Shown in pieces: positions 20,800 to 50,340 of a stretch of 64,000 bases of DNA (position 1 is its first letter; every line of letters starts with the position of its first letter). Both the position numbers and the translations under genes were made by a program. The notes beneath the pieces were generated by a model that searched no databases, had not been told where the DNA came from, and was given only the letters and a program-made list of their open reading frames with translations. The stretch is from Echinicola rosea (lineage in GTDB: Bacteria; Bacteroidota; Bacteroidia; Cytophagales; Cyclobacteriaceae). The stretch spans positions 3,934,501-3,998,500 of the forward strand of contig NZ_CP040106.1 in NCBI RefSeq assembly GCF_005281475.1, read 5' to 3'.

Positions 20800-22107
20800 T
20801 TAGTTTACCATTTTTCCTTCTTTTACCAACTCCTTTTTGATTCCGGTAAGCAGGTCTTCCTGACCAAGTTCCTTTTTATCCTTGCTAAGTGCCTTCAAAC
20901 TGGCATATTGGATTACATTGACAATATTAGCTCCGGTAAGTTCATATTTTTTTGCAAAGACGGAGAGATCGAGATCTTTGGCGATCTTTGCCTTTGGTGG
21001 GATATTCTTTTCCCAGAGGATAAGTCTCTCAGCCGCCACAGGCAATGGAAACTCAATGATACTTTGGAATCTCCTGGTGAAGGCCATGTCAATATTACTT
21101 TTAAAATTAGAAGCTAAAATCACCAAGCCAGGATGATTTTCGATACGCTGTAATAAATAAGAGACTTCTTGATTGGCGTACTTGTCATGCGCATCACGGA
21201 CATTGGTGCGCTTTCCGAAAATAGCATCTGCTTCATCAAAGAACAGGATCCAATCTTTGTTTGCAGCTTTGTCGAATAAAGAAGATAGATTCTTCTCTGT
21301 CTCCCCAATGTACTTGGACGTGACTAAGGAAAGGTCTATCCTGTAAACATCCTTCTGGGTATATTTCCCCAATAAGCTTGCGGTGAGCGTTTTGCCAGTT
21401 CCAGGGGGGCCAAAGAACATCACGCGATATCCTGGCTTCAATCTCTTGTGCATTCCCCATTCGTGCAATAATGCATGTTCATGCTGAAGCCATTCTTCAA
21501 TTTCCTGAATATGGTTTAATGTTTTTGAATTCAAGACAAGATCTTCCCATTCCAATTCGGTATTGATCAGCTGTGCTGGAAAACTGGAACTTAATTTTGG
21601 TTTGCTGATACGTTCCGTGGTAAAAAGTTCGGCATATTCTCCGTCCATAATCAGGGCACCAGACCAGCGTGGTTCGCTTCTACTGCCTTCTTCCAGTGAG
21701 ATGATCCCTTTTTGGAAGAGGAAGGATGTAGTGAACAGCGGTAAGTATTTCTTTCGGGTATTGGCATCATTGCCAGCCAAAATGTACAGGGCAGTTTCCC
21801 CTGTTGGGATGATTCCACGATGGTTTTTGGCTTTTATCCCACCAAATTCCGGAAACTCCCCTCCTTTTGGAAAATACGCTTGAATGATACGATTAAAGAA
21901 ACCCGGGTCTATATGCGGAACCAGTGCCAAGGTCAGTAATAATAGCTCTTGGTTTTTGACTTGGTGGTCAAAAATAAATTTTCCCAATGCCTCCTCCTTG
22001 TTGAGGTGTAAGTCCATCTGAGGCTTTGGGAGCTGCTTTACCTTGCCTGTTTCAAAATCCATCCGTGCACAAATGGCAATCTTCAAAAAATGTAATAGTT
22101 CGTTCAT
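20800..22107 (-). CDS. eCIS-associated AAA+ ATPase (Afp15/Pvc15-like)
   Basis: A 435-residue protein whose C-terminal half is an AAA+ ATPase: Walker A GPPGTGKT at 233-240, Walker B ILFFDEAD near 285, and the arginine-finger region FTRRFQSIIEFPLP near 350. The N-terminal 225 residues are family-specific. Afp15/Pvc15 homologues are found in almost every eCIS locus and are needed for particle assembly or cargo loading; that role is inferred here from position and domain. It is the last gene of the operon, 132 bp after the muramidase-like gene. Confidence 0.88.
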   Translation of the reverse strand: MNELLHFLKIAICARMDFETGKVKQLPKPQMDLHLNKEEALGKFIFDHQVKNQELLLLTLALVPHIDPGFFNRIIQAYFPKGGEFPEFGGIKAKNHRGIIPTGETALYILAGNDANTRKKYLPLFTTSFLFQKGIISLEEGSRSEPRWSGALIMDGEYAELFTTERISKPKLSSSFPAQLINTELEWEDLVLNSKTLNHIQEIEEWLQHEHALLHEWGMHKRLKPGYRVMFFGPPGTGKTLTASLLGKYTQKDVYRIDLSLVTSKYIGETEKNLSSLFDKAANKDWILFFDEADAIFGKRTNVRDAHDKYANQEVSYLLQRIENHPGLVILASNFKSNIDMAFTRRFQSIIEFPLPVAAERLILWEKNIPPKAKIAKDLDLSVFAKKYELTGANIVNVIQYASLKALSKDKKELGQEDLLTGIKKELVKEGKMVN

Positions 22108-22239
22108 GGGTGAGGATATAAAGTTGAAATGTCGTAATGTTTTGGGTTTACAGGTAGAATGGTTTGGCTGGCCACCACCTAGTGCCTACCCAGGCTGTAA
22201 TGGATAGACCAATGCCTATTCCGTGCTTAACTTCGTCCT

Positions 22240-23061
22240 TCATTTGTACCTTTCATAAGCACGTTGGAGTTTGACATCATAGTGGTTTTGGGCGTAGGCG
22301 GGGCCATTGTAACCCCTAGCAAATTTGGCCCAATCTTTTCGTTTCAGGTGCCTGATAAGGTTCTTGGCCTCAAGAAATTCCCCAAAGGCTTTTAGATGCT
22401 CCCGCTCATGTTTTTGCATTTTTTGCACAAAATCCTTCACCGAAGGATAGCCAAGGTTTATGGCATGGTAGCCCATGATCTGAAAGGCTCCCCAAGAAGC
22501 AGATGAATAAGCCGCATCTTCAAATTCGGGCTTTGTGTCTATATTAATGGCCTTTTGTAATCGATCATATTCTGCTCCTCCCCCTTTGTAGTGATTGCGT
22601 GTCCATTCTGGATAGAGCACATTACTGGTTTGCTGATTGAAGTAAGTATTGGGATCGATCCCTCTTTGTTTCAGCTGTCGCCAAAACACATGGCCTTCAA
22701 AAAGGATCTTAGCCCTTCCATCAGCCAAAAAACCTTTGCCACTGCTTTCTACTTCATTTACAGCTTTGACAGTGGCCAGTTCGAGGTCATATTCATTACC
22801 AAAAGCTATTAAGTCCTGCTCTGCGAGGAGTTTATTGTTTTGTTGGAGCACCTCTGGGTTTTGTTCGAGTAGTTTACTCCAGGTTTTCAATCCGACGATA
22901 CCATCGACCACCAAATCATTTTTCTGCTGATATTCCCAGATCGCATGATGGGTATCCAATCCAAAATAATTGGAAACATAAACTTGATACCCCATATCGG
23001 ATAGTATTTCTTCCAAAAAGCGTACTTCAGGTCCGCGAGAACGGTATTTGATGGTTTTCAT
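22240..23061 (-). CDS. Peptidoglycan-binding N-acetylmuramidase-like protein
   Basis: A 273-residue protein without a signal peptide. Residues 1-65 form a PG_binding_1 domain (SRGPEVRFLEEIL, then VVDGIVGLKTWSKLLEQ), and the rest is an N-acetylmuramidase (DUF3380)-type lysozyme domain. Its N-terminal core reads VNEVESSGKGFL, with Glu103 and Glu105 as catalytic candidates, and it continues through SASWGAFQIMG and FARGYNGPAYAQNHY. It would cut peptidoglycan glycan strands. Encoded between the TPR and AAA+ genes, it may help particles leave the producing cell by lysis, or act as cargo on target walls; both are inferences. Confidence 0.85.
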   Translation of the reverse strand: MKTIKYRSRGPEVRFLEEILSDMGYQVYVSNYFGLDTHHAIWEYQQKNDLVVDGIVGLKTWSKLLEQNPEVLQQNNKLLAEQDLIAFGNEYDLELATVKAVNEVESSGKGFLADGRAKILFEGHVFWRQLKQRGIDPNTYFNQQTSNVLYPEWTRNHYKGGGAEYDRLQKAINIDTKPEFEDAAYSSASWGAFQIMGYHAINLGYPSVKDFVQKMQKHEREHLKAFGEFLEAKNLIRHLKRKDWAKFARGYNGPAYAQNHYDVKLQRAYERYK

Positions 23062-23066
23062 AGTTT

Positions 23067-23936
23067 TCAGGATGTTTGGTTTTCAATGAGATTCTTGTAA
23101 TGCCTTGCTTTAGGAAATTCAGGCTTGATTTTCAAGGCTTTTTCAAAAAGTGATAGCGCTTCATCATATTGGTGCAAACTGCTAAGAATGACACCCTTTT
23201 CCGTTAGGATATTGGGATTTTCCCCATCATATTTTAGCAAAATATCCAATTGTTCCAGGCCTTTTTGGGTGGCTCCTTTGGCAAGGTAGTTTAAGGCGAG
23301 ATAGTACCTGAAGTCCGGGTGATCAGGGGAGATGGCCAATGCCCTCATTAAAGCCTTTTCGGCTAGCCCATGATTCCTAAGTTGAAATTCACATCTACCG
23401 ATCTGAAACCAGATTTCGGCATGTTTCCCTTCGCCAGAATGGGCATATAACAGCTCCAGAGCAGGTTCCAGGTCTTTTTGAAGGATCATGACCTTTGCCA
23501 TTTCCAGAAAATGCGCTGGCTTTGGAGCCAGCTGGACGACTTCATTCCAATAAGCCCTGGCATCCCCCAAGCGATTTTGATGAGTGGCTAGATGCGCTAA
23601 GCTGACCCAAGCCCCAAGTGCCTTTGGAAACTTTTTGACAGTGTTTTGGTATTGTTTTCGGGCGTCCTCGAGTTTGCCCTGCATGGCCAGCGAATTTCCT
23701 GCGTTTACCATATAACTGGCTTTTTCTTCTAAGTCAATTGCTTTTTGGAAAAATGACAAGGCTTTGTCAAAATCCTTCTGCTGATGATAGTACAATCCCA
23801 TGTTGTTCAGTAGGGATGTGTTTTCTGGATGAAGCTTGTAGGCTTCTTCATAACAGGAAACCGCCTGGTCAAATCTTCCATTTAGGAAATGCTTGGCTCC
23901 CTGATTGTTAAGTTCGATAGCTCTTTTGGTTTCCAT
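23067..23936 (-). CDS. TPR-repeat protein of the eCIS locus
   Basis: A 289-residue cytoplasmic protein built of about eight tetratricopeptide repeats, starting directly at residue 1 (RAIELNNQGAKHFLNGRFDQAVSCYEEA) and continuing with regular 34-residue spacing to FEKALKIKPEFPKARHY. There is no signal peptide. TPR proteins mediate protein contacts; here it lies 10 bases after the 1209-residue DUF4157 protein gene and 5 bases before the muramidase gene, so it may serve as a chaperone or assembly factor for cargo or particle parts. Homologues with this context are not individually recognised. Confidence 0.8.
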   Translation of the reverse strand: METKRAIELNNQGAKHFLNGRFDQAVSCYEEAYKLHPENTSLLNNMGLYYHQQKDFDKALSFFQKAIDLEEKASYMVNAGNSLAMQGKLEDARKQYQNTVKKFPKALGAWVSLAHLATHQNRLGDARAYWNEVVQLAPKPAHFLEMAKVMILQKDLEPALELLYAHSGEGKHAEIWFQIGRCEFQLRNHGLAEKALMRALAISPDHPDFRYYLALNYLAKGATQKGLEQLDILLKYDGENPNILTEKGVILSSLHQYDEALSLFEKALKIKPEFPKARHYKNLIENQTS

Positions 23937-23945
23937 AGTAGTAAT

Positions 23946-26900
23946 TTAAGAAAATATATCGTTTTTAACATCCCTGGCAAGCCCTTTCGCCATATCAATA
24001 ACATCCAAATCAGGATAGATTACTTCAATGTCATCGAATGACATGTCGAAAGCTTCGCCCTCTCTGTAGTGAACCGGAAAGACTACACCAAACTGAATGT
24101 CGGGGCCCCATTCGTACGAAGCAAGATTGTGACGCCAAGTTTCGGAAACCGAAAACCATCCGATTCCCAAACTGGCCCGGGCAAAGGCATTCAGGTCGAA
24201 GGTGAATTTTGGATTGACCGTAACCCGCCCTTCTGCGTCTAAGGCCAAGCCAGTTTGAGGGCTCCAGTTGACATCTACTTCCGCAGCTGCTTCCCCTTCC
24301 AGCCCCAAAGATCCCGCAAGCTCAATTCCGCCTGTCAAGCTGGCAATACCGACACTCACGCCCAAGCTCAAGTCGCCACGTAAAGTCAAACCTGCATCTG
24401 CAGGAATGGCAAATTCCCCATGACCTGCTACCGTAGTTTCCTCTTCCCGCTCAGGGTTATAGGTGATTTCCGCAGACATATTGCGCAATTCTCCTGGGCC
24501 GAATCCGGCGGTAAAATCCAATCCGCCACCAATTTGCGCCACTAACCCAATACTCCGTGGTCCCAACGGAATGGCAAACAGGGGGATTTCTATGGTAGGT
24601 ACCGTAAATAGATTACGGTTAACCTCTCTTCTACTAAACACCTCATACCTGTCCGAAGCCAATCGAGCGGTTACCTCGATCTCTCCTTCCGGTGTAAACG
24701 TGACCCCAGCTGTAGCTTCTAACCAAGGCGTCAATTGCAAGGTCAAACTTCCACCACCATATACCCGCATGGTATCGTCAGGCTCACCAATAGGCTCTCC
24801 ATTCTCCCCGATAGCACGATTGGTCGCCCCTACCTCTATGGTGCCACTCAACATTCCCCGCTCGTAGGAAGCTCGGCCTTCGATGGTCAAGGCACCATTT
24901 TCATAGGTGACCGATAATTCCGATGATATGCCCGGAATATCCGGTTGGGCTGTTCCCGAAACAAATACATCATATTCTTCAGCACCAGATTCCTTGGACA
25001 CACGTGCGGCTACATTACCTCCAGAGATACCCGGGATGTCACTACTCAGGTCAAAGTTACCACCAATAGAAAAACCCTCATCACCATATTCGATGGACAT
25101 GGCTCCACGCTCTATGCCCGGAATGTCAAGCTCAGCTTCACCTGTGGCACTGAACGTGTTTTCGCTGTAAGTGGCATTGATGGTAGCGCTTTTGACTCCG
25201 CGAACCTTGCCTTCGGGAATGCCGATTTCACCGCCAATCGTCCAGATATTATCCTTGTATTCTACCGTTATCTCAGCAGGATCAAATAACTCCGAGTCAA
25301 AATTAAATGCTCCTTCCAGCTCAAAACCACCTTCCGTAGAAGCGGCTGCACCGATGTGTCCTTCCCCTACTTGGTCGATGCCGAAGTTTACTTGGCCTGA
25401 AATGCCAAGACCTTGAGTGCCAAAAGAAACTTCTAAAGTTGTTTCAGAGATGCTAAAAGGTGAAGGCATGGAAAACTCCTCTGAGGTAAAAAGCTTCCTC
25501 AACCTGATTCCATCTCCATCAATAACAATGTCTATATCTGCATCAGCAATAAAAGGAACGGTGGGTAATACCTTACCGATACCGTAAAATCCGTTTTCAG
25601 TGATATCAAGTTGATCGACCCTGATTGGACTCATCCCTGGTAACCTGAGACTCTGGAACACCCCTCCAGTTCCTTTCATTGCCTCATCAAGTGTCTTTTG
25701 TTTATCCACATAGAAAATGTAGGTTCCTTCGATCTTGTCCATGTACCAAGTCATACCGCTGTAGGAAGCACTTATAGTGTTTTTTCTCATATCAGCAGCT
25801 TTATAGGCATCTATGGCGAGAGTTTTGTTTTCAAAATCCGGAGGAGACTTTAAATCAACTCTGGGTAGCCATTGGCTTTTGGGAAATTCACTTTCTTCTG
25901 GTATGGACAGTTTTTTCCCACCTGAAGGAGAGATAAACAGGGCAGGATCAGATTCATTCCCCATCTGCTCTATTTCCTCGGCAGACATTCCTTCCAGTTT
26001 ATCTAAGTGCTGCCCACCTTCAATATCACTGTATTTCCAATGTTGATCGGGGTTACCTGATTTGGTTTCAAGATTAAAATCATTACTCTCAAAGGAAATA
26101 TTATATCCTTGATTTCTAAAAAGGTTGACATATTGGTTAGCCCTAGCAGGACGTGAAGGTAAATTAGGCCTATACTGCTTACTTGGATCTTGGTAATATG
26201 GAGACTTTAATACATCATATACTGCCTTTATTTTTTTATTCATTTCCCAAGCAATACTCGAACCTGAACTGCCATTAGCAGACCCTTCCAATAATTCATA
26301 GTTATCTTTCGTGTCCGCTCCACCTAATTGATGTTCTACGATATGATCTACTTGAAATGAAGCAGGTGAAAGATCTTTGTCCCATATCGGGATCAAACTT
26401 AACTCGAGCAACTCTGCCCTATTACCAAAAACAATGTACTCGGGATCATTTTTTCCTTTAAAAAAATATTTCCGGTCTTCTTCTGATTCCTCTTTTGAAA
26501 AACCTCCCAAATTAGTGGCTTCACTCACCTTTGCATTTAAAAGTGGAGTCACAGCAGTATTTAATGACGATTTCCAATTTTCTATTTGGTTGGTGTCTCT
26601 CCCAGTTGGAAGTTGAAAAGGAGGATTAAATCGATTGGCATATCGTGTACCTTTAAAATCACTAATACTGATCTTACCAATTTTTAAATTCTTCGCTGAT
26701 CCCGATTCTAAGGTAGATAGGCTTCCATCAGCATCCTGAAAGGAAAAGTTATTTTGACTTTCATTAACAGGTTGTATCCCTTCTGGTGGACTCAACGCTT
26801 CCTCCTCCCCTTCCTTCTGTACCATCTTTCCCTGCACGGCATTGCTGCTGCCCTGCTGGATTGTGTGGGTCAGCTCATGGGCCAGGAGATGCTGGCCTGA

Positions 26901-27575
26901 CGGACTGCTGGGATTATACTTTCCTTCGTTGAAATAGATGTCATTACCATGGGTAAAGGCCTGTGCCCCCAGGTCACTGCTCATCTGTACTGCACTGCTG
27001 TCGGTATGGATATTGACTCCGCTAAAATCGGCTCCAAAGCCACTTTCCATGCTGGATTGGGTGCTTGGATCCATTGGACTGCCTCCGCTGCCGGATTTGA
27101 TTTGGCCCTCAAGTTGGGGACTTAAAGCCTTGCTGTGCTCGGACTGGGCTTGTACATTTCCCTCATTGGGATCATCATCATCACTGGCACCGAGGCTTTT
27201 CTGAAATTCCTCGTCATCCTGCGTTTGGAGCTCCTCTTCCTCCTCCTTTTCCTGTACCTGCTCTTCTTCCGTTTGTGACTGTACCACGGGTGTGACGGAC
27301 TCGGCGAGCGGTTTTTCCTGTGCTTCAGCTTCGGTGGTTTCTGCCGTTACGAGTTCTTCCTCTTGCTGTGTTTGTACGGTGGTTTCTGGTGATGGTGAGG
27401 TTGTGGTATCGGTTTCATGAATACCACTGACTACTTGGTCTGCCATTTGATCAGCTTCCATTTCGAATTTATCCCCAGGTTGACCCATGTTCAACTTGGC
27501 CTGAAAGAAGTTCTCGGGCTGCTTTTGGGCAGGATTGCCTTGGGATTGATTCGTTTTGGAACTGAAGTGTTTCAT
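23946..27575 (-). CDS. Giant DUF4157 protein with HNH-like motif and beta-rich C-terminal half, candidate eCIS cargo
   Basis: A 1209-residue protein. Residues 1-165 are low-complexity (E, Q, T rich). Residues about 170-245 form a DUF4157 domain with the zinc-type motif HELTH (233-237) after IHTDSSAVQMSS and AFTHGNDIYFNEG. Residues about 408-450 hold an HNH-like signature (VDHIVEHQLGGADTKDNYELL then N433), which resembles the DH...H...N arrangement of HNH nucleases. From about 680 to the end the chain is beta-rich, with repeated I-P-G-I units (for example DIPGIERGA, DIPGISGGN, DIPGISSEL). There is no signal peptide. DUF4157 proteins are frequent in eCIS loci and some are loaded cargo. Function is inferred, and neither the nuclease nor the protease activity is proven. 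Confidence 0.75.
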   Translation of the reverse strand: MKHFSSKTNQSQGNPAQKQPENFFQAKLNMGQPGDKFEMEADQMADQVVSGIHETDTTTSPSPETTVQTQQEEELVTAETTEAEAQEKPLAESVTPVVQSQTEEEQVQEKEEEEELQTQDDEEFQKSLGASDDDDPNEGNVQAQSEHSKALSPQLEGQIKSGSGGSPMDPSTQSSMESGFGADFSGVNIHTDSSAVQMSSDLGAQAFTHGNDIYFNEGKYNPSSPSGQHLLAHELTHTIQQGSSNAVQGKMVQKEGEEEALSPPEGIQPVNESQNNFSFQDADGSLSTLESGSAKNLKIGKISISDFKGTRYANRFNPPFQLPTGRDTNQIENWKSSLNTAVTPLLNAKVSEATNLGGFSKEESEEDRKYFFKGKNDPEYIVFGNRAELLELSLIPIWDKDLSPASFQVDHIVEHQLGGADTKDNYELLEGSANGSSGSSIAWEMNKKIKAVYDVLKSPYYQDPSKQYRPNLPSRPARANQYVNLFRNQGYNISFESNDFNLETKSGNPDQHWKYSDIEGGQHLDKLEGMSAEEIEQMGNESDPALFISPSGGKKLSIPEESEFPKSQWLPRVDLKSPPDFENKTLAIDAYKAADMRKNTISASYSGMTWYMDKIEGTYIFYVDKQKTLDEAMKGTGGVFQSLRLPGMSPIRVDQLDITENGFYGIGKVLPTVPFIADADIDIVIDGDGIRLRKLFTSEEFSMPSPFSISETTLEVSFGTQGLGISGQVNFGIDQVGEGHIGAAASTEGGFELEGAFNFDSELFDPAEITVEYKDNIWTIGGEIGIPEGKVRGVKSATINATYSENTFSATGEAELDIPGIERGAMSIEYGDEGFSIGGNFDLSSDIPGISGGNVAARVSKESGAEEYDVFVSGTAQPDIPGISSELSVTYENGALTIEGRASYERGMLSGTIEVGATNRAIGENGEPIGEPDDTMRVYGGGSLTLQLTPWLEATAGVTFTPEGEIEVTARLASDRYEVFSRREVNRNLFTVPTIEIPLFAIPLGPRSIGLVAQIGGGLDFTAGFGPGELRNMSAEITYNPEREEETTVAGHGEFAIPADAGLTLRGDLSLGVSVGIASLTGGIELAGSLGLEGEAAAEVDVNWSPQTGLALDAEGRVTVNPKFTFDLNAFARASLGIGWFSVSETWRHNLASYEWGPDIQFGVVFPVHYREGEAFDMSFDDIEVIYPDLDVIDMAKGLARDVKNDIFS

Positions 27576-27606
27576 CTAGGTACGTCTTGGGTGTTTTCGG
27601 AGAGAA

Positions 27607-28176
27607 TTATTCACATGAGGAATGGTTTACGGGTATTATATTGGTGCAGAAAGGATTGCTCTTTTTTGAATCTTGGTCTGTAGTAAAGGGCACTAGATTG
27701 CCATAAATTCTTAGGTAACCTATCGCTTCTTTTTGATTTTCAATGGCCGGAAATGACAAGGTAAACTGGTACTTGGACTTCGGCGCAAAATGAAGTGTGC
27801 TCTGGTTGACCACTTCATTTAGATCAAATTGGTTTTCATTATAGGTTACCTTTTTGACGACAAAATCAAAGTCTCTTTCTGGATCCAGCGGCCGGTTAAG
27901 GTTAAGCAAAAGCACTGGCACTTTATCCTCCAGTGGGATCACCTTTTGTCCTTTATCGATCCATTCCATTTTCAAATAATATAAGGGGTTGACTATGTCC
28001 AAAGGAGCATCACTGATACAGTTCATGGTAATTTCCAGTAGTTCCGATTCCGGACTCCAAAAGAGCTCTTCAACCGTCACGGTAAACGAACTGTTATTGT
28101 CTGATCGTATGGATTCGACTTGGCCAAGGATTTCTTGAAGAGGGATGTCAATGGTATTTTTCACAATGGTGTTCAT
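27607..28176 (-). CDS. Conserved-looking protein between the two DUF4157 genes, unknown function
   Basis: A 188-residue cytoplasmic protein. The frame is open upstream to 28236, but the start at 28176 (MNTIVKNTIDIPLQ) avoids a hydrophobic leader over the neighbouring gene boundary. The sequence is beta-rich (FTVTVEELFWSPESELLEITMN, YLKMEWIDKGQ, IGYLRIYGNLVPF). It lies 31 bases before the 1209-residue DUF4157 gene and 72 bases after the 626-residue one. It could be a cargo adaptor, chaperone or immunity protein, or a structural part; the sequence alone does not decide. Confidence 0.6.
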   Translation of the reverse strand: MNTIVKNTIDIPLQEILGQVESIRSDNNSSFTVTVEELFWSPESELLEITMNCISDAPLDIVNPLYYLKMEWIDKGQKVIPLEDKVPVLLLNLNRPLDPERDFDFVVKKVTYNENQFDLNEVVNQSTLHFAPKSKYQFTLSFPAIENQKEAIGYLRIYGNLVPFTTDQDSKKSNPFCTNIIPVNHSSCE

Positions 28177-28248
28177 GGTATAATGATGATAACTAATCCA
28201 AACTATGACATAGAAATATACACTTAATGCATACATTGAAGTAGCACT

Positions 28249-36265: not shown

Positions 36266-36276
36266 GACGGTATTGA

Positions 36277-42386: not shown

Positions 42387-42403
42387 TTAATGGATAATTA
42401 ATG

Positions 42404-42428
42404 GTTATTGGTTCGTGCGTTATTGGTT
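42404..42428. repeat. Short direct repeat in the gp25-baseplate J gap
   Basis: GTTATTGGTT occurs twice exactly, at 42404-42413 and 42419-42428, inside the 103-base gap between the two genes. The gap shows no gene. Confidence 0.5.
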
Positions 42429-42489
42429 ACTGCCTGCTGACTACTTGATACCGATCATCGTACCAGATACCTTTTCTTTGTGCTCCTTA

Positions 42490-42906
42490 TTACCTGCTGA
42501 TATCAGTACCCTCTTCCATATAAAAGGGATATACCATATTTTTTCTGGCATTAGTGGCCCTGACCCTGTAATGGAGGTGAATGAGTAACTCTCCCTTTAA
42601 TTCGTCTCCTTGTGTAATGTCGATTTTCTCCGTTTCAATCCTTGGTTCATGGTAGAGTATGGCATTTTTGATCAGCTCGGTGACGTAAGTTTTCAAGGTC
42701 CTGTTCATCGAACTGAACAATAGTTCGTCAAGGTTACAGCCATAGGTAGGCTGCATGATTCGCTCACCAAGCTTGGTTCCAAAAAGGATTTCCAGACTTT
42801 GGTTGATGTCTTCCACTCCGGTACTTGTTTTTAAGCGACCGCTTTCCTTGTTGAATTCTGGGGGAAAGCTCCATCCGGTTCCTAAAAATTCGTTACTATC
42901 TGCCAT
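42490..42906 (-). CDS. gp25-like baseplate protein (Afp9/Pvc9-like)
   Basis: A 138-residue protein of the T4 gp25 family, a small wedge subunit that joins the baseplate. The family pattern of a polar N-terminus (FLGTGWSFPPEF), an ILFGTKLGERIMQPTYGC segment and a conserved E-P-R-I turn (YHEPRIETEKIDI) is visible. It lies 5 bases after the PAAR gene and 103 bases before the baseplate J-like gene. It matches the position and length expected in an eCIS. Confidence 0.92.
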   Translation of the reverse strand: MADSNEFLGTGWSFPPEFNKESGRLKTSTGVEDINQSLEILFGTKLGERIMQPTYGCNLDELLFSSMNRTLKTYVTELIKNAILYHEPRIETEKIDITQGDELKGELLIHLHYRVRATNARKNMVYPFYMEEGTDISR

Positions 42907-42911
42907 GACTT

Positions 42912-43202
42912 TTATCCGATTAATACTGTAGGTTCGCCAATTACAATACTGCCTCCATGGGCTGTGGTATCTCCGAGCCTCGCCGCCGGCATCCCTCCTA
43001 TCATTACCGAAGACGATCCCATCACGATACTGTCAGGAGGTCCAGTGCACGTGGCCATATCCCCCACACGTGCTGCCGGCATGCCACCGATCAAGACGGT
43101 AGGCTCACCAGGTGGCATGATAGGGCCTCCTACATGGGGAACGGTGCCTGTCACCATTGGACAGACATGCATATCATTTGCTCTTGCTGCTGGCATTCCC
43201 AT
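42912..43202 (-). CDS. PAAR-motif spike tip protein (Afp10/Pvc10-like)
   Basis: A 96-residue PAAR-type protein that sharpens the spike. The three tandem G-G-M-P-A-A-R copies (GMPAARAND at the start, then two GGMPAARxGD copies) give the metal-binding tip, and the Cys and His residues (HVCPMVTG, ATCTGPP) fit zinc coordination. It lies 5 bases before the gp25 gene and 92 bases after the VgrG-like gene. There is no C-terminal extension, so no attached toxin domain. Confidence 0.93.
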   Translation of the reverse strand: MGMPAARANDMHVCPMVTGTVPHVGGPIMPPGEPTVLIGGMPAARVGDMATCTGPPDSIVMGSSSVMIGGMPAARLGDTTAHGGSIVIGEPTVLIG

Positions 43203-43294
43203 TTTTTTATATTTAGTTGTTAGAAATAAGAGGTTTGGCTTATCACTTACTATCTATGAAAATCAAGCGTACTTATAACTTGATGCTTACCTCG

Positions 43295-45043
43295 TCAATT
43301 AATCTGCACCAATGACCCCTTGAGTACCGCTACGGCGCTGGTACTTACTTCCGCACCAGCACTGCCTTCGGCTTTGAACTGGGCATTGGCTTTTACGTTT
43401 ACATTGGTGCCTTCCAGGTTAAGGTCCCCTGTTGCTTTGATATTGAAATCCTTCGCTGCTTCCAAGGTAATTCCACTGCTGTCCAGCACTGCAGTATTGC
43501 CATTTTGATCTTCAATGGTAATACTGCCGGCATCGTCGTCTAGCAAAGCTTTATTTCCTCCCGGTGTTTCTATCAGCACGCTGGATTTTTCATCATCAAA
43601 AATAAGCTTCATGCCGGATCGGGTATGGATGCCTTTTTCGTGGTTGTCATCAGCCCCTGGAATGGGGCTGGGCTTGGCACTGCTATGGAGCATTCCCAAG
43701 ATCACGGCATCGTTTGGATCTTCATTGATAAATCCTACCACCACTTCATCCTCAAGCTCAGGCCTAAAGGTCACGCCTCTCTCATTACCGGCATCGAGAC
43801 ATGCCTGTCTGCACCAAATGCCCTCTTCTTCATTATTGATGATGGGAATTTTTACTTTGATACGATCTTCCCCATCCGGATCTTCTTCCAGCTTGGTCAC
43901 TATCCCTACTTGTAAGCCGCTGATCGCAGCTGTCAGGCCAGCTGCTGGCGGGGTATGGATAGTTGACTCAGATTCAGCAAACCAGGATGGATCGAATCCA
44001 AACTGAGCATCTATCGTCCAATTTCCCTCGGCTATCTGGTGGCTAATGCCCGAAATAAAGACCTTGCCATTAAAGCGATCCCCTACTCCTTCTAGGAGTA
44101 AATTGGTACCGGGTTTTACGTTTGGAATGCCCTGGAACTTGATCCTTCCCCTGGTCTTGGCCATTTGCTGGAACTTCCATTTGGCATCCGCCCAATCTTG
44201 TAGAGCAGTATCTTTTTTACTCCCTCCATGTCGCAGGATCATCTCACTGTCATCCCATAGAGCTGCTAGATCATCCGAGGAAATATTGCCATTCATGGCC
44301 AAGGCAGGATCCGTTCCCTCAATCTCCCATAACGCTTGCTCAGCCATATTCCATGCTTTTGCCACTGTTTTGGGAATCTGGGTTCGGGCATCCATCTCGG
44401 CATCAAACTCCAAAACAGTAGCTCCAAACGTTACAGTCTCGACAGGGGAAGCACTTACATCGGGCAGTTGAAATGTTAATTTCCCATCATCTACCAATCC
44501 AATCATCCCATTGGCTTGGGCCCGCATCATCATAAAATCCCAATCGGTCACATCATACTGGATCAATTCGGCGTGGGTGGTATTGGTGGAGGAAATATCA
44601 GTATCCAAGCCATGATCCGCTCCAAGTGCTTCCAGGACATCCGCGTCAGACATTTCATAGAAATATTTGCTTTTCCTTCTCAGGGTAGATTTGACCGCCT
44701 TATCCTTGGCCTCTACCATCAGTAAGCTCTGGTTGTTTCGGATTTTTAGGCTTTGCTTTACGATGATTCCCTTAAAAATGGTGACTTCATCAGAATGGTA
44801 GCCTGCAGCAATTTCAATTTCCTTTCCAGGCACAAAATGCTCTCCATTACTGACTGTAAAATCCCTTTCGGATGGATCACCGTCCAAAATAGCCAGTTTT
44901 GCCACTGGAATCCGGTTGATTTCCTTGGACACGAGGATATTCTTTACTTGGATCGTGCCTGGGATTTCCTCTCCATCTATCAGGACCTTGTACGTTACCC
45001 GATCCACGCTCTGGCTGGTCGATATAGTGCCACTGTTGTTCAT
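43295..45043 (-). CDS. VgrG/gpV-like spike protein (Afp8/Pvc8-like)
   Basis: A 582-residue spike of the VgrG/gp5+gp27 type. The N-terminal part is the gp27-like cap (VSKEINRIPVAKLAILDGDPSERDF), then a gp5 OB-like fold (GIVTKLEEDPDGEDRIKVKIPI and EDEVVVGFINEDPNDAVILGMLH) and a C-terminal beta-helix region (GITLEAAKDFNIKATGDLNLEGTNVNVKANAQF). No attached effector domain is seen. Its start overlaps the LysM gene end by 4 bases. The PAAR tip follows downstream. Confidence 0.92.
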   Translation of the reverse strand: MNNSGTISTSQSVDRVTYKVLIDGEEIPGTIQVKNILVSKEINRIPVAKLAILDGDPSERDFTVSNGEHFVPGKEIEIAAGYHSDEVTIFKGIIVKQSLKIRNNQSLLMVEAKDKAVKSTLRRKSKYFYEMSDADVLEALGADHGLDTDISSTNTTHAELIQYDVTDWDFMMMRAQANGMIGLVDDGKLTFQLPDVSASPVETVTFGATVLEFDAEMDARTQIPKTVAKAWNMAEQALWEIEGTDPALAMNGNISSDDLAALWDDSEMILRHGGSKKDTALQDWADAKWKFQQMAKTRGRIKFQGIPNVKPGTNLLLEGVGDRFNGKVFISGISHQIAEGNWTIDAQFGFDPSWFAESESTIHTPPAAGLTAAISGLQVGIVTKLEEDPDGEDRIKVKIPIINNEEEGIWCRQACLDAGNERGVTFRPELEDEVVVGFINEDPNDAVILGMLHSSAKPSPIPGADDNHEKGIHTRSGMKLIFDDEKSSVLIETPGGNKALLDDDAGSITIEDQNGNTAVLDSSGITLEAAKDFNIKATGDLNLEGTNVNVKANAQFKAEGSAGAEVSTSAVAVLKGSLVQIN

Positions 45044-45729
45044 TGCTTTTGCTTTTGAAGTGGTGGGAACCTAAGCTCTGTACCTGTTTTTAGTTTCCTG
45101 AAGTTGGTCAGTCCATTTGCTCTGGCCACTTCGAGATAATACTTGCTGTCCCCATAGATCCGGTAGGTCATAAGGGGAAGTGTATCCCCATCTTTGACCA
45201 CTCTGTAATGCGTCAGGTCCGGTGACTGATTATTCTCTTGGGCCGTACGAAGTTCTTCTTCGACAAACTCCCCGATCTTTGCTGTGGCCAGTGCCCTGAT
45301 TGGGGTACCATCCGGCCTGAAAAGCTTATACTCAATATCCATCTCCTTGAGATAGCCCTTGAATAACAGGCTTCCCCAAGTGATCATCAGGTAATTGGGT
45401 TTGTGCTTTTCTCCATTGTACTCATAGACGATCTTTTTGAAATGTGCTACGTCATCGATGACGCCGTTTTCGGTGGCTTCATATCCCGCGATCACCCCCG
45501 TGCGGTCAAAGAGAAAATCCAGTTCCAACGTCTGCGGCAAAATTTTATTGAAGCGGATGGGGGCTGCACTGGTTCCTGCTGCCTGATCCTCATTTTGCTC
45601 CACCCTATACTGAAATTTGTATTTTTCAGGATTGAGCAAGGTGGTGAATTCACCATTGTCCACCTCTTCTGAGAACTTAGCATCCTTGTAGGCGACGATT
45701 TTTAACTTTTCCAGTTTTCCTTCACTCAT
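45040..45729 (-). CDS. LysM-containing adaptor protein (Afp7/Pvc7-like)
   Basis: A 229-residue protein with a family-specific N-terminal part (LKIVAYKDAKFSEEVDNGEFTTLLNPEKYKFQY) and a C-terminal LysM domain (THYRVVKDGDTLPLMTYRIYGDSKYYLEVARANGL, residues about 172-205). In Afp/PVC this subunit (Afp7) bridges the tube and the spike/baseplate. The start at 45729 is 3 bases beyond the stop of the DUF5908 gene; the end overlaps the VgrG-like gene by 4 bases. Confidence 0.9.
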   Translation of the reverse strand: MSEGKLEKLKIVAYKDAKFSEEVDNGEFTTLLNPEKYKFQYRVEQNEDQAAGTSAAPIRFNKILPQTLELDFLFDRTGVIAGYEATENGVIDDVAHFKKIVYEYNGEKHKPNYLMITWGSLLFKGYLKEMDIEYKLFRPDGTPIRALATAKIGEFVEEELRTAQENNQSPDLTHYRVVKDGDTLPLMTYRIYGDSKYYLEVARANGLTNFRKLKTGTELRFPPLQKQKQ

Positions 45730-45732
45730 GGC

Positions 45733-45891
45733 TTACCTTTCCTTTTTGTTTTCCAAAATCTCCATAACCTGCTCTACACATTGGGATATGATTTCTTGCT
45801 GTCCCCCACTTCCGGACTTTTTACTCCCAACAGATGATTTCCCTTCATCCACAGTGATTTTGATATGCAATTCCTTGATTTCAATGGGCAT
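45733..45891 (-). CDS. DUF5908 family small eCIS protein
   Basis: A 52-residue protein missed by simple length filters. It begins MPIEIKELHIKITVDEGK, with the MPIEI-x-EL-x-I-K start that I associate with the DUF5908 family, and continues with a Ser/Gly-rich linker and a C-terminal helix (IISQCVEQVMEILENKKER). Such small proteins occur in eCIS loci of Bacteroidota. It fills the gap between the second tube gene (stop 45894) and the LysM gene (start 45729), with 2 and 3 bases between them. Its role in the particle is not established. Confidence 0.85.
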   Translation of the reverse strand: MPIEIKELHIKITVDEGKSSVGSKKSGSGGQQEIISQCVEQVMEILENKKER

Positions 45892-45893
45892 CA

Positions 45894-46355
45894 CTATTCT
45901 TCGTTTGTGATTTTGGTAAAATAATTGTAGGCCAATTCAAGTGATTCAATGGCCAACTTACTCTCTTCTGCATTAAAATCATCCACACTCCACTTTACAG
46001 GGTAAGCATGCACGATATTCCAAGAGATCAACGGCTCATGCTCCTCATTCAGGAGAGAAACCGTGACATCCAAGGGCTGGAAAATAAAATTCTCAATTGC
46101 ATCCCTGCACCATGAAATCAATTCGGAATCCACCAACAGGCCTCTCTTGAGGACAAGATTGGGGTACTTGGTTTTGACGGGGAATTTATGTTTAAACCTG
46201 TTTTCCCCGCCTTCTGCAAATTCCTCCGTATCTATATCCACACTCAGACCGGAAACGGACTGAAAGGCATGGTCCTTTTTCTTACTGACCTGGTCTCCCT
46301 TTTGTGAAAAGGAAACCTGAAAGTGAAAACTGGATGGTGGATAAAACGTGTCCAT
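45894..46355 (-). CDS. Inner tube protein, second paralogue (Afp5-like)
   Basis: A 153-residue tube protein of the T4 gp19/Hcp-like family. Typical pieces are SFHFQVSFSQ near the N-terminus, VSGLSVDIDTEEFAEGG, and ISWNIVHAYPVKWSVDDFNAEESKLAIESLELAY at the C-terminus. It resembles its upstream neighbour but differs at the ends, as expected for the tube-initiation or tip-proximal subunit. It lies 8 bases after the first tube gene and 2 bases before the DUF5908 gene. Confidence 0.93.
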   Translation of the reverse strand: MDTFYPPSSFHFQVSFSQKGDQVSKKKDHAFQSVSGLSVDIDTEEFAEGGENRFKHKFPVKTKYPNLVLKRGLLVDSELISWCRDAIENFIFQPLDVTVSLLNEEHEPLISWNIVHAYPVKWSVDDFNAEESKLAIESLELAYNYFTKITNEE

Positions 46356-46363
46356 TGCCTGTA

Positions 46364-46792
46364 TTATTCATTTTGAATCGTAAGTCCCTCATGGGCTATT
46401 TCCATGGATTCTATTGCCACTTCGTTTCCATCTCCCTTGAGGTCAGTAGATTGGATTTTGAGCGGCCAAGCATTCTTAACCTTCCAGGTCACCACGGGTT
46501 CATGCTCTTCGTTTAACAGGCTAATGGTGATATCCCGTCGCTCTACTTTGTTCAGGTTGATGGTTTGATACCATTCGTAATACTTGTTGTTTCCCTGGAA
46601 AGTGCCTCTTTTCATCGTGAGATTTGAAAACTTCTGCATTCCGGGCATTTTGATTTTGCTGTATTCCGGCATGGCTCCATCCCGGTACTCAATGATCTCG
46701 GTTTCCATATCCAATCCGGATATTTCAGTAAACCCTATTTTATCTTTTCCCCACTCCACAGAGAAATGAAACTTTGATAATGGATAGCTCAT
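46364..46792 (-). CDS. Inner tube protein, main paralogue (Afp1-like)
   Basis: A 142-residue tube protein of the gp19/Hcp fold. Its SKFHFSVEWGKDKIGFTEISGLDMETEIIEYRDG start and the final VTWKVKNAWPLKIQSTDLKGDGNEVAIESMEIAHEG are canonical. It is shorter than the second paralogue (142 versus 153 residues) and probably forms most of the tube. It follows the sheath gene after a 114-base gap and precedes the second tube gene by 8 bases. Confidence 0.94.
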   Translation of the reverse strand: MSYPLSKFHFSVEWGKDKIGFTEISGLDMETEIIEYRDGAMPEYSKIKMPGMQKFSNLTMKRGTFQGNNKYYEWYQTINLNKVERRDITISLLNEEHEPVVTWKVKNAWPLKIQSTDLKGDGNEVAIESMEIAHEGLTIQNE

Positions 46793-46837
46793 GATTGTTC
46801 TGTTTTAGTTACTTGGTTATTATGTTGTTTGCATTCG

Positions 46838-46857
46838 GTCAACAGCCCACTGTCAAC
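46838..46857. repeat. Direct repeat in the sheath-tube gap
   Basis: GTCAAC appears twice (46838-46843 and 46852-46857), separated by AGCCCACT. The 114-base gap has no gene. Its wording is similar to the repeated CAGTCCAC segments at 30179-30209. Confidence 0.35.
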
Positions 46858-46906
46858 CATCCGCGGTGCATGTGCTCATGACATCAGGCACCGATCATGT
46901 TACCTA

Positions 46907-48877
46907 CTAGGATTCCTGCATTTTGTGGGAAAATTTGAGAATGATAAACTCAGCTGGCCTTACTACGGCCATTCCAATTTCTACATTCATCCTTCCTTCC
47001 AATACATCCAAACTGGTCATCGTCTGACCCAATCCCACTCTTACATAAAATGCATGCTCTGGCTTGGCTCCTGCCAAAGCGCCTGCTCTCCACTGTAGCG
47101 TAAGGAAGTTTTCGATCATCGCCCTTACCCTGACCCAGGTATTGCCATCATTCGGTTCAAAGACAAATTGCTCGGTAGCCTTTTTGATGGACTCTTCTGC
47201 CATGATAAAGAAACGCCTCACCGATACGTATCTCCATTCATTATCGTTTCCGGCCAGGGTCCTGGCACCCCATACCATAATACCTTTACCGGTAAATGGC
47301 CTGATAATGTTGATGGATTTCCCGGCCACGACGTCCACATTGAGGTTTTCTTGTTCTTTATGGTCGATCAGTTCGGTCACACCGACCACATTGTTAACAG
47401 ACACATTGGCTGGGGCTTTCCACACTCCCCTGCTGGCATCCACGCTAGCATATACACCGGCTATGGTGGCACTTGGTGGCAAGGTCAAGTATTCATTCGC
47501 GATCCGTTGGAAAATACTTTTGAGCGCCGGTATGGCCTCTTTGGCAGAATTTTCGACGGTGGAGGTAAAACTCTCTCCGGATGTGGCAATGAGGTCGAGG
47601 GAGGACTTTATACTGCTCCATAATTTGGTTATCGCACCTACATGGGGCTGGATCCTTTCCACATTGGACGTTCCGGTACCGAAATAGGTGTTCGTCGATG
47701 TGCTACTGGTATAATCCAAACCGGTATCCGAAGCAGCCAAGGTCAACGCTGAACTCAATGAGCTACTGTCCCCATTGATTTTGGCAATTTCATTTTCGGT
47801 GCTGTCCAGTGCAGTACTTAATTTTGAAACCAAGAAATCAAATAGATATTCATCATTTCCAGCAGGAGCACTTTTGTCATTCAACGTAATGGCTGAGCCA
47901 GACCCAATATCAATCGTATCCCTGATCATGTCCATGCTCTCGGTATAATAATTGATAAGAGCTTCCAGATTTGCCTTATTCGAGGTGTTTTTGAGTGTAT
48001 TGGATAGCGCTTCGAATTTTGCCTGAAATGAAGAATGGGTTCCTTTCAGTGCATCGATGGCATCTTTGATGGTGGTTTGGTCATCCACCAGGTTGTCCAG
48101 TCGATTGGCCAGTGCTTTGGCATCCGCATCTGCGATTAAATCTGCTAGATTAACAGCAGGACCATTTTGGGTGATTTTACCTTTAATGTCCTTATAGTTC
48201 ACCACCCGAGGAAGATTGGCTTTTATCCAGGGAGAATAAGCAGCTCCATATTTAAGGTAATTCATGCCTATTCCATTTCTGAAATTCTCCACCGCTTCAT
48301 CGTGGTCCACCGTATCCTCTTTTAAGTCAAAAATGCAGAACCTATCTTGAAGTTCATTGCACTGGCTTAGCATCGCGGCATAGAGTGAATTTAGATTGCT
48401 TTGGCTCATCAATGGTGCATCCGGCATCACCAATAAGGTGGGCCTGTCCACTTTCTTGATCTTAGCCAAACCTGCGAGAAACCCTGGAGTAGCTCCGTCA
48501 GCGGTGCCGTTTTGGATGGTGTCTTGGTACGAACCAACCGATACCACGTAACAGTCACCTCCTCCATTGGCATAAAACATCCTAATACACTCATAGAGAT
48601 GGAATTTTTCTGTTAGCTCCAATTCGGTGACTTGATTCTGTGCATTGATTTCCAGCGTACTTATATCCACCTGGGGGGCTCCACCAAAGTGTTCGGTAAA
48701 TTCAAGAACTGAAGAAATCTTCACTGGTTCATTTGGAGGGAGGTTCTTCTCCCCATCTTTGGCTTTTTCCGTGTATCCTATAAAGGCCGGAATCGCTGTT
48801 TCTACTTGTGCTACAGAAGGTGGAAATTTGGTGATTTCCTCTATGTAAACACCTGGTGTTTTATATGATGTTGCCAT
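46907..48877 (-). CDS. Contractile sheath protein
   Basis: A 656-residue sheath subunit. The N-terminal start (SYKTPGVYIEEITKFPP) is the classical sheath motif and the C-terminus (RVRAMIENFLTLQWRAGALAGAKPEHAFYVRVGLG, then VVRPAEFIILKFSH) is the conserved core that forms the contractile lattice. Residues about 230-465 form a Ser/Thr/Asp-rich insertion with helical stretches, not part of the core, that would be exposed on the particle surface. It is the only sheath gene, where Afp/PVC have several. It lies 12 bases after the unknown 286-residue gene. Confidence 0.94.
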   Translation of the reverse strand: MATSYKTPGVYIEEITKFPPSVAQVETAIPAFIGYTEKAKDGEKNLPPNEPVKISSVLEFTEHFGGAPQVDISTLEINAQNQVTELELTEKFHLYECIRMFYANGGGDCYVVSVGSYQDTIQNGTADGATPGFLAGLAKIKKVDRPTLLVMPDAPLMSQSNLNSLYAAMLSQCNELQDRFCIFDLKEDTVDHDEAVENFRNGIGMNYLKYGAAYSPWIKANLPRVVNYKDIKGKITQNGPAVNLADLIADADAKALANRLDNLVDDQTTIKDAIDALKGTHSSFQAKFEALSNTLKNTSNKANLEALINYYTESMDMIRDTIDIGSGSAITLNDKSAPAGNDEYLFDFLVSKLSTALDSTENEIAKINGDSSSLSSALTLAASDTGLDYTSSTSTNTYFGTGTSNVERIQPHVGAITKLWSSIKSSLDLIATSGESFTSTVENSAKEAIPALKSIFQRIANEYLTLPPSATIAGVYASVDASRGVWKAPANVSVNNVVGVTELIDHKEQENLNVDVVAGKSINIIRPFTGKGIMVWGARTLAGNDNEWRYVSVRRFFIMAEESIKKATEQFVFEPNDGNTWVRVRAMIENFLTLQWRAGALAGAKPEHAFYVRVGLGQTMTSLDVLEGRMNVEIGMAVVRPAEFIILKFSHKMQES

Positions 48878-48889
48878 GATAAAAAAGGT

Positions 48890-49750
48890 TTAAATGAAAA
48901 TTTCTGAATATGGTTTGTTTGCTATAAATTTTATTTGCTTGGGACTGGGATTTGGAAACTTGTATTTATCCAAATTGCCAGGCGGTGAATTAAAATCTGA
49001 CGGCTTGTCCAAGGTGATAAACCCAAATCGAGTCAGGGGCCATTCCTTTATCGTTTCTGTTTCAAAACCATCCCGCTGATGAATATATTTCCAAGTGGTC
49101 TTTTGATTGTCAAAATGGATTTTGAAATGCGGCAGGTTATCCTTTATCCTACCGTCATTGATGATGAGGCTTTTATTGGTATGGTCACCTTGCATATAGA
49201 TATGAAGGATGCCGTCTGTGTTAATCGTATTCTCTTGATCCAGAAATTCCAACAGGTGACGCTTGTTTTCCCCATTAAAAAGATACCTGTTCGTAACAGT
49301 GGCCTCCTGGTTTGTGGTATGGATAGTATTGAAATGATGGCTTTCTGGAAGTAAGGGCTCTTTATTGGAGAAATAAAATAATGCACCAGTCCTTTCCAAG
49401 TTTGTATAATTGTCAAAAAGGGGATCAGTAAAAGAAAGCCTAAACACAAATTGCTGGTCTCCATCAAGAGGCACATAAGGTACCCGGTCATCATCAGAAG
49501 TTACCTTAACTGCTACCATTAGCTGGTTAGAAAATGGTTTCAAGATCATCAACTGGCCATTAAGCATCTCCATCGTTTTGGCAGTTGGTGTGATATTCAA
49601 AAAATCCTGCCAATGATAGGCCGCTAATTGCTCTTCCTTTTTATCATCGCCCATACTGCTGAACAGCTCTTCTCCGTCATTTAAGAAGTAGTTGTGGAGG
49701 ATGCTTAATGTGAAGATAGGTCTGTATGTGGAAGTAGCTTTCATGGTCAT
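48890..49750 (-). CDS. eCIS-associated protein of unknown function between the Pvc16-like and sheath genes
   Basis: A 286-residue cytoplasmic protein with a beta-rich composition (YRPIFTLSILHNYFLNDGEEL, QFVFRLSFTDPLFDN, TTWKYIHQRDGF). It has no signal peptide or enzyme motif, and I do not recognise a family. It overlaps the upstream DUF4255 gene by 4 bases and precedes the sheath gene by 12 bases, so it is almost certainly a structural or assembly component. Its location fits a cap or sheath-associated subunit, but this is inference. Confidence 0.65.
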   Translation of the reverse strand: MTMKATSTYRPIFTLSILHNYFLNDGEELFSSMGDDKKEEQLAAYHWQDFLNITPTAKTMEMLNGQLMILKPFSNQLMVAVKVTSDDDRVPYVPLDGDQQFVFRLSFTDPLFDNYTNLERTGALFYFSNKEPLLPESHHFNTIHTTNQEATVTNRYLFNGENKRHLLEFLDQENTINTDGILHIYMQGDHTNKSLIINDGRIKDNLPHFKIHFDNQKTTWKYIHQRDGFETETIKEWPLTRFGFITLDKPSDFNSPPGNLDKYKFPNPSPKQIKFIANKPYSEIFI

Positions 49751-50340
49751 TGCTGATTGTAGTTTCTGCTGATTTCGGTGATGACACCAGATTGTGAAAT
49801 TGGTAGGTCCCTTTCGATTTGAACCAGGTTCAATTTGTAAAAAACGGATGGAAGTTGTCTTCCTCCCAAGGTGCCCCAGATATAATTCAGCTCCTCAAAA
49901 GTCGGCGTAAAAAGCTCTATCGTAAACCGGAAGTGCTTAATGCCACTCATCTCATCCAGCTCACGATCAAATGAGGTATTGGACTGGGTAAAGACTTTTT
50001 TGTGCTGGAAAAACTCCAATATCCTCGATAAGTCGCTCAGTGATTTTTTATAAACAGCGCGATTGGCACAGAATATCAAAAATAAGTTGAGGTTTAGCTT
50101 GGGGTTTTTATAGTTGACGGTTTCCTCTTCTATCTGATGATTGGAAAAATTCTTCATGGTAATTTCTTCCCTTAGGTTTATTACCGATAAGATCAACTTA
50201 TTTTTCAGGGACTCGGCTACATCCTGCTGGGAATCGATCATGGCCACATTCTCCAAGATGACTTCGGAGTCGTCCATTTCCAGTTCATTGAAATACTGGT
50301 TTACTTCACCAGCTAGAATTTTTAGTACTTCAAAAATCAT
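49747..50340 (-). CDS. Tube/sheath terminator protein, DUF4255 (Afp16/Pvc16-like)
   Basis: A 197-residue protein of the DUF4255 family, represented by Afp16/Pvc16, which caps the growing tube and sheath at the end away from the baseplate. The N-terminal helix with MIFEVLKILAGEVNQYFNELE and the central NPKLNLNLFLIFCANRAVYKKSLSDLSRILEFFQ are family-like, as is the terminal WGTLGGRQLPSVFYKLNLVQIE. It is the first gene of the operon, directly after the AT-rich leader. Confidence 0.9.
   Translation of the reverse strand: MIFEVLKILAGEVNQYFNELEMDDSEVILENVAMIDSQQDVAESLKNKLILSVINLREEITMKNFSNHQIEEETVNYKNPKLNLNLFLIFCANRAVYKKSLSDLSRILEFFQHKKVFTQSNTSFDRELDEMSGIKHFRFTIELFTPTFEELNYIWGTLGGRQLPSVFYKLNLVQIERDLPISQSGVITEISRNYNQQ

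What the first reader, a model, noticed from the sequence alone, without database searches (positions are those of the whole stretch)
20800..50340. Complete extracellular contractile injection system locus in one orientation
Twenty consecutive minus-strand genes, many overlapping by 4-20 bases, encode tube (two), sheath (one), LysM adaptor, VgrG-like spike, PAAR, gp25, two wedge proteins, tape measure, Pvc16-type cap and AAA+ ATPase. This is the eCIS family (Afp, PVC, MAC, AlgoCIS). There is no phage capsid or terminase and no TssJLM. The order and the presence of DUF5908, DUF4157 proteins, a PKD protein and a muramidase resemble Bacteroidota loci such as AlgoCIS, but the set of cargo candidates and unknown genes may be distinct.
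Basis: partly seen in the sequence, partly recalled or inferred. Interest (0 to 1): 0.9.

Follow-up and report, generated by a model that had tools for sequence, protein, structure and literature searches.

The report
Bacterial injection machine with swappable cargo
This is a complete gene set for a phage-tail-like protein syringe of an already described type (AlgoCIS) in a marine Echinicola bacterium; the new part is that one of its two predicted cargo proteins appears to exchange its central, probably DNA- or RNA-cutting part between species while both ends stay nearly unchanged.

Summary
Confirmed. The 20 minus-strand genes at 20800-50340 encode a complete extracellular contractile injection system (eCIS), orthologous to AlgoCIS. 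For all 8 machine proteins compared with the PDB, the best match is an AlgoCIS chain. The genus is Echinicola; 11 of 11 held genomes have the locus. As a machine it is a new member of a known kind.

The new part is the 1209-aa cargo, orthologue of AlgoCIS Cgo2. Its N-terminus (with eCIS_core) and ~430-aa C-terminal beta domain are conserved, but an internal ~1.56-kb segment is replaced in frame. Against E. strongylocentroti, DNA identity is 91-96%, then 11-58%, then 75-100%. In 27 Cyclobacteriaceae proteins the centre forms nine discrete types (within-type at least 63%, between-type at most 30% identity); four occur in more than one genus. Among 95 proteins found by the C-domain alone, 94 keep an HNH-nuclease-like motif in the centre. 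A TPR gene follows directly in 29 of 29 loci examined. No neighbouring gene varies with the type, so no immunity candidate was seen. Loading, nuclease activity and target are untested here.

The parts
49747..50340 (-). Alg16A-type cap, 197 aa
   Evidence: Pvc16_N 1e-35; PDB 7adz cap protein 6.7e-95
48890..49750 (-). Alg16B-type cap adaptor, 286 aa
   Evidence: no Pfam; only PDB hit 7adz cap adaptor 1.4e-87
46907..48877 (-). Alg2 sheath, 656 aa
   Evidence: Pfam sheath; best PDB hit 7adz 9.9e-148
46364..46792 (-). Alg1 tube, 142 aa
   Evidence: Phage_T4_gp19 2.4e-48
45894..46355 (-). Alg5 tube, probably tube initiator, 153 aa
   Evidence: Phage_T4_gp19 2.5e-47; initiator role by analogy
45733..45894 (-). 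Alg6 plug, DUF5908, 53 aa
   Evidence: DUF5908 3.6e-20; PDB 7aef inner protein Algo6 1.9e-13
45040..45729 (-). Alg7, CIS_tube domain with LysM-like end, 229 aa
   Evidence: CIS_tube 3.4e-55; Phage_tail_X below cut-off
43295..45043 (-). Alg8 VgrG-like spike, 582 aa
   Evidence: Phage_base_V 3.8e-19; PDB 7aef 1017 bits
42912..43202 (-). PAAR tip, 96 aa
   Evidence: PAAR_motif 8.6e-28
42490..42906 (-). Alg9 gp25-like, 138 aa
   Evidence: GPW_gp25 2.1e-24
39084..42386 (-). Alg11 wedge with cage extension, 1100 aa
   Evidence: Baseplate_J 1.3e-10; PDB 7aeb 1364 bits
36277..39096 (-). Alg12 wedge, 939 aa
   Evidence: PDB 7aeb 1449 bits
31952..36265 (-). Alg19 tail fibre with PKD domain, 1437 aa
   Evidence: PDB 9wt0 1462 bits
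30285..31955 (-). Tape measure, 556 aa
   Evidence: CIS_TMP 5.7e-99
28249..30129 (-). Cgo1-like cargo, 626 aa: eCIS_core, PG_binding_1, second HExxH
   Evidence: Pfam; HExxH at 273 and 511
27607..28236 (-). Unknown protein, 209 aa, found in the 4 of 11 Echinicola with this Cgo1 type
   Evidence: no Pfam hit above cut-off; distribution
26811..27575 (-). Cgo2-like cargo, conserved N-terminus: leader and eCIS_core, residues 1-255
   Evidence: eCIS_core 167-243, 2.8e-31; conservation
25236..26795 (-). Cgo2 exchanged internal segment, nt 781-2340 of the gene
   Evidence: DNA identity profile; nine types in 27 proteins
26262..26348 (-). HNH-like motif of Cgo2, residues D410 to G438
23946..25235 (-). 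Cgo2 conserved C-terminal amphipathic beta domain
   Evidence: 73-100% identity in most Cyclobacteriaceae hits; models
23067..23936 (-). TPR protein, likely cargo chaperone, 289 aa
   Evidence: TPR_2 3.2e-39; next to Cgo2 in 29 of 29 loci
22240..23061 (-). N-acetylmuramidase, 273 aa
   Evidence: Muramidase 9.9e-71
20800..22107 (-). AAA+ ATPase, 435 aa
   Evidence: AAA 3.4e-26

Best explanation
The locus builds an AlgoCIS-type eCIS. As reported for AlgoCIS, particles assemble in the cytoplasm, reach the medium, bind a cell surface through the Alg19 fibres, and on contraction push the tube through the outer membrane and lose the cargo held in the tube; here this is inferred by orthology. Two cargo proteins are encoded. 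Cgo1 has a variable C-terminal domain. Cgo2 has a conserved N-terminus with eCIS_core, a central HNH-like domain that is exchanged as an in-frame cassette between lineages, and a conserved amphipathic beta C-terminal domain. The TPR protein is most likely a loading chaperone for the constant ends, so that different central cassettes can be carried by the same machine. The turnover of cassettes suggests conflict with changing, probably bacterial, competitors. Shown here: gene content, orthology, mosaic structure, motif, predicted fold. Inferred: loading, nuclease activity, chaperone role, target.
For: 8 of 8 machine proteins compared have an AlgoCIS chain as best PDB match. 11 of 11 Echinicola genomes carry the locus in the same order apart from some small genes near the cargo. 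A. machipongonensis has a 1228-aa protein with 89% identity in the C-domain, one HExxH and the motif; Cgo1 and Cgo2 fill the AlgoCIS tube (PMC8894135 section 15). Mosaic DNA profile; discrete types. Motif in 94 of 95 proteins found by C-domain alone, in 18 of 1900 shuffled middles. Strand-strand-helix around the motif at block pLDDT 83-95; Pfam HNH E 0.0035. TPR neighbour in 29 of 29 loci, none in the two Echinicola whose Cgo2 lacks this centre and C-domain.
Against: Pfam HNH is below its cut-off (17.9 against 21.4 bits). A profile search of the PDB gave no nuclease relative worth naming, and fold searches were filled by the beta domain, so the centre's fold was barely tested. The AlgoCIS paper reports growth inhibition for Cgo1; the text read reports none for Cgo2, and no tested strain, E. 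pacifica included, was killed by AlgoCIS. No immunity gene was seen, unusual for an antibacterial toxin. On the tree of flanking genes only one change above the minimum is needed, and that tree places E. strongylocentroti differently.
Confidence: 0.7

Rival explanations
1. The central part of Cgo2 is not a toxin but a fast-evolving packaging or structural segment that varies for reasons unrelated to a target.
For: No activity is known for Cgo2; Cgo2 deletion empties many AlgoCIS tubes, so it may also serve as filling.
Against: A nuclease-like motif is kept in 94 of 95 proteins although the rest of the centre falls to 18-30% identity; types do not follow the machine tree and are shared across genera.
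Confidence: 0.2
2. The types are ancient alleles that diverged in place by fast evolution, without exchange between lineages.
For: All centres but one are linked by sequence (160 of 161 in one cluster at E < 1e-10), so they share an ancestor.
Against: Sharp identity steps inside one gene with flanks at 75-100%; no intermediates between 30% and 63%; the window's centre is 67% identical to Cyclobacterium plantarum and 54% to Algibacter but 25% to E. strongylocentroti.
Confidence: 0.07
3. The apparatus stays attached to a membrane in the producer, like T6SSiv or the thylakoid-anchored CIS, instead of being released.
For: Alg11, Alg12 and Alg8 also match the Anabaena system 7b5h, more weakly.
Against: AlgoCIS chains score far higher (Alg12 1449 against 386 bits), and AlgoCIS was found in the supernatant and never anchored. 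No DotU/TssL match.
Confidence: 0.05

Closest known systems
AlgoCIS of Algoriphagus machipongonensis (PMC8894135, PMC13314943)
   Same: Best PDB match for 8 of 8 machine proteins compared; cap adaptor, plug, cage wedge, Ig-type fibre, two DUF4157 cargo proteins.
   Different: 20 genes here against 18 ORFs reported. Cgo2 centre is of another type (about 30% or less).
DUF4157 polymorphic eCIS toxins / EATs (PMC8213781, PMC11297309; passages seen)
   Same: N-terminal leader region and eCIS_core fused to a variable, probably toxic part.
   Different: They are described with the toxin domain at the C-terminus; here the variable part is central, followed by a conserved domain of about 430 aa.
HNH nuclease bacteriocins such as nuclease colicins (recalled, not compared here)
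   Same: HNH-like motif and divergent exchangeable toxin types.
   Different: No neighbouring type-matched immunity gene seen; delivery by a contractile tube; exchanged part is internal.

Membership tests
AlgoCIS-type eCIS | Sheath, tube, spike, PAAR, gp25, two wedges, cap and ATPase in one locus | tested here: met
AlgoCIS-type eCIS | Short Alg16A cap plus Alg16B cap adaptor | tested here: met
   PDB 7adz chains, 6.7e-95 and 1.4e-87
AlgoCIS-type eCIS | Alg6 plug | tested here: met
   7aef inner protein Algo6 1.9e-13
AlgoCIS-type eCIS | Alg11 with cage and Alg19 Ig-type fibre | tested here: met
   7aeb 1364 bits; 9wt0 1462 bits
AlgoCIS-type eCIS | Two DUF4157 cargo proteins in the tube lumen | tested here: inconclusive
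   two genes present; location in the tube not testable here
AlgoCIS-type eCIS | Free particles released to the medium | not testable with these tools
   reported for AlgoCIS
HNH nuclease superfamily (centre of Cgo2) | D-H ... N ... N/H motif | tested here: met
   94 of 95 C-domain-only proteins; 18 of 1900 shuffled middles. Motif form recalled
HNH nuclease superfamily (centre of Cgo2) | Strand-strand-helix fold around the motif, matched to a solved HNH structure | tested here: inconclusive
   secondary structure fits; no structural match tested for the centre alone
HNH nuclease superfamily (centre of Cgo2) | Pfam HNH above cut-off | tested here: not met
   17.9 bits, cut-off 21.4
HNH nuclease superfamily (centre of Cgo2) | Nuclease activity | not testable with these tools
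   no assay
Classical polymorphic toxin system | Discrete toxin types on a conserved carrier | tested here: met
   nine types in 27 proteins
Classical polymorphic toxin system | Variable toxin domain at the C-terminus | tested here: not met
   variable part central, median 1 residue after the C-domain
Classical polymorphic toxin system | Adjacent immunity gene that varies with the toxin type | tested here: not met
   TPR is 88% identical to two species with other types and 79% to the species with the same type; the 209-aa gene behaves alike. Immunity genes elsewhere were not searched
Type VI secretion system (TssJLM type) | DotU/TssL | tested here: not met
   no PF09850 match in the genome
Tailed prophage | Capsid and packaging genes | tested here: not met
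   no PF05065 match in the genome, ordinary flanking genes; other capsid families and terminase not searched

The most novel reading that the evidence does not exclude
Cgo2 is a universal carrier with a plug-in warhead in its middle. The AlgoCIS tube was seen to end in the periplasm of E. pacifica; the conserved amphipathic beta C-terminal domain would then insert into a membrane and carry whichever central nuclease cassette is present into the cytoplasm, while the TPR chaperone, instead of an immunity protein, keeps it harmless in the producer.
Probability: 0.2. Interest if true: 0.75.

Novelty: new variant of a known kind. Interest (0 to 1): 0.5.

Why it matters
What AlgoCIS-type particles do to their targets is not known. 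A cargo whose nuclease-like centre is swapped while both ends stay constant shows where its active part probably lies, points to use against changing competitors, and offers nine natural variants to test. It also shows that searching for eCIS toxin domains only at the C-terminus would miss such cargo. E. pacifica, on which AlgoCIS firing was imaged, carries a locus of the same kind, so attacker and target both hold such machines.

Tried and rejected

Rows dropped: of 32 of 295 family genomes matching the C-domain, 27 proteins were used; left out were G240 (cut by a contig end), G175 (two pieces), G012 (fragments), G102 and G208 (weak, no locus). One search used the 29 loci L142-L170; L171 was not used. 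One search scored 7990 candidates and one search scored 7993, listing 120 of 327 hits. Alignment A2 used 87 of the 160 other proteins. The 66 proteins were chosen by likeness to the centre, so their motif count is not independent; the 95 are.
Full report
The observation. The window lies in a complete 6,064,527-bp chromosome. Twenty minus-strand genes run from 50340 down to 20800. The 939- and 286-aa proteins without Pfam hits are a wedge and a cap adaptor by PDB sequence match; the 209-aa protein stays unknown. Five neighbouring pairs overlap, by 1-13 bases.

Which organism. Same-genus genome G004 has the locus on a contig of 832,219 bases at the place of the Echinicola pacifica DSM 19836 record. 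The window is therefore Echinicola; no call names its species.

What the machine is. I compared 8 of the 20 proteins with the PDB as single sequences: Alg16A, Alg16B, Alg2, Alg6, Alg8, Alg11, Alg12 and Alg19. In each case the best match is an AlgoCIS chain (entry identities). Alg12, Alg8 and Alg19 match over nearly their whole length with 1449, 1017 and 1462 bits. All 11 held Echinicola genomes have the locus after the same DEAD-box gene, in the same order except for small genes near the cargo. In the family, 34 of 295 genomes drawn have an Alg12 relative at E <= 1e-100, the 11 Echinicola included. One capsid family and DotU give no match in the genome. The machine is a new member of a known kind. 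What is reported for AlgoCIS (cytoplasmic assembly, particles in the supernatant, two cargo proteins filling the tube, fibre-dependent binding to E. pacifica and passage of the tube through its outer membrane) is carried over as inference. Read: PMC8894135 abstract, sections 6, 15, 16 and passages; PMC13314943 abstract, section 8 and passages.

The cargo. Two proteins carry eCIS_core, the only two in the genome. The 626-aa one has two HExxH motifs, as described for Cgo1. The 1209-aa one has one, and corresponds to an A. machipongonensis protein of 1228 aa that shares 89% identity in the C-terminal region, which I take to be Cgo2. Across Echinicola, residues 1-255 and about 780-1209 of this protein are conserved in 9 of 11 genomes, but the middle is not. 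On DNA, the window against E. strongylocentroti shows 91-96% identity over nt 1-780, 11-58% over 781-2340 and 75-100% afterwards, although the Alg1 tubes are identical and Alg12 is 92% identical. This is an in-frame replacement of about 1.56 kb inside one gene. G001 and G008 have a different middle and C-terminus altogether.

The centres fall into discrete types. Among 27 Cyclobacteriaceae proteins there are nine types: 58 within-type pairs are at least 63% identical in the centre, 293 between-type pairs at most 30%. The 60 same-genus pairs of different type are 80-99% identical in the C-domain. Four types occur in more than one genus (all). On a tree of nine machine proteins the five types of nine Echinicola need 6 changes where 4 is the minimum; on a tree of two flanking genes, less resolved and placing E. 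strongylocentroti outside the other three close species, 5. Further afield, the window's centre is 67% identical to that of Cyclobacterium plantarum and 54% to Algibacter pacificus, but 25% to E. strongylocentroti. The A. machipongonensis centre is 67-71% identical to proteins named Seonamhaeicola, Mariniphaga and Tenacibaculum. Clustering the 161 proteins at 40% identity gives 19 groups.

What the centre does. In the 66 sequences aligned for their likeness to the window's centre, D410, H411, E414, Q416, N425, N434 and G438 are invariant. Among the 95 further proteins found by the C-domain alone, 94 have the core motif and a stricter form of it, against 18 of 1900 shuffled middles for the core motif; the exception, P0069, has no eCIS_core. 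The model shows strand (ending at D-H), loop, strand, helix at block pLDDT 83-95, the arrangement of HNH nucleases (recalled). Pfam HNH matches the same stretch at E 0.0035, below cut-off. I put an HNH-like nuclease at about 0.75. Against it stand the lack of any solved relative, fold searches filled by the beta domain, and the AlgoCIS paper's report of growth inhibition for Cgo1 only in the text I read.

C-terminal domain and partner gene. It is predicted as 27 strands (mean pLDDT 85.9, pTM 0.62). Its best structural matches are membrane beta-barrels, at about 20 A rmsd. A TPR gene follows the cargo gene in 29 of 29 loci examined and was not found in the two Echinicola whose Cgo2 lacks this centre and C-domain. 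It follows the species and not the type, which fits a chaperone for the constant parts better than an immunity protein.

Cgo1. Its C-terminus is exchanged in the usual way. Four species share the window's form with HERVH; in the window it has a peptidoglycan-binding domain. Three have HEVGHTAGLKH, a metzincin-like motif (name recalled). G002 has a peptidoglycan-binding plus an L,D-transpeptidase domain. G004 and G001/G008 have other forms. Peptidoglycan-related parts, the muramidase gene and AlgoCIS binding to a bacterium make bacterial targets more likely than eukaryotic ones; this is inference.

Verdict. The finding is real and correctly read as an AlgoCIS-like eCIS, ordinary for its genus as a machine. 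The cargo with an exchangeable centre between constant ends was not found described in the searches; one paper places the toxin part of DUF4157 proteins at the C-terminus (PMC8213781, passage).

Noticed in passing
L002 / G004 (Echinicola pacifica): E. pacifica, the bacterium on which AlgoCIS binding and firing were imaged, carries its own AlgoCIS-type locus (Alg12 57-58% identical to the window's) with another Cgo2 type.
   Followed up: partly
46907-48877: The middle of the sheath (about residues 241-420) also looks exchanged: 10-18% identical to G010 and 11-13% to G004, but 76-80% to the more distant G002.
   Followed up: partly
55402-58032: A DDE transposase gene (56145-57377) lies between a globin-domain ORF and an FAD/NAD-reductase ORF, as if inserted in a flavohaemoglobin gene.
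   Followed up: no
L122:6556-9900, L136:6561-10586 (G001, G008): Cgo2-position cargo without HNH motif; G001's middle is rich in hydrophobic stretches and G008's has a weak holin-like match below cut-off; no TPR gene.
   Followed up: no
G117, G235, G151 (genus g41): Alg12 relatives each with one stop codon inside the match, perhaps decayed loci.
   Followed up: no
[quoted passage not shown]
   Followed up: no
39084-42386: Alg11 residues 501-600 are a local hotspot of change within the otherwise conserved wedge (14-21% to G003, G006, G002, G004 and G001).
   Followed up: no
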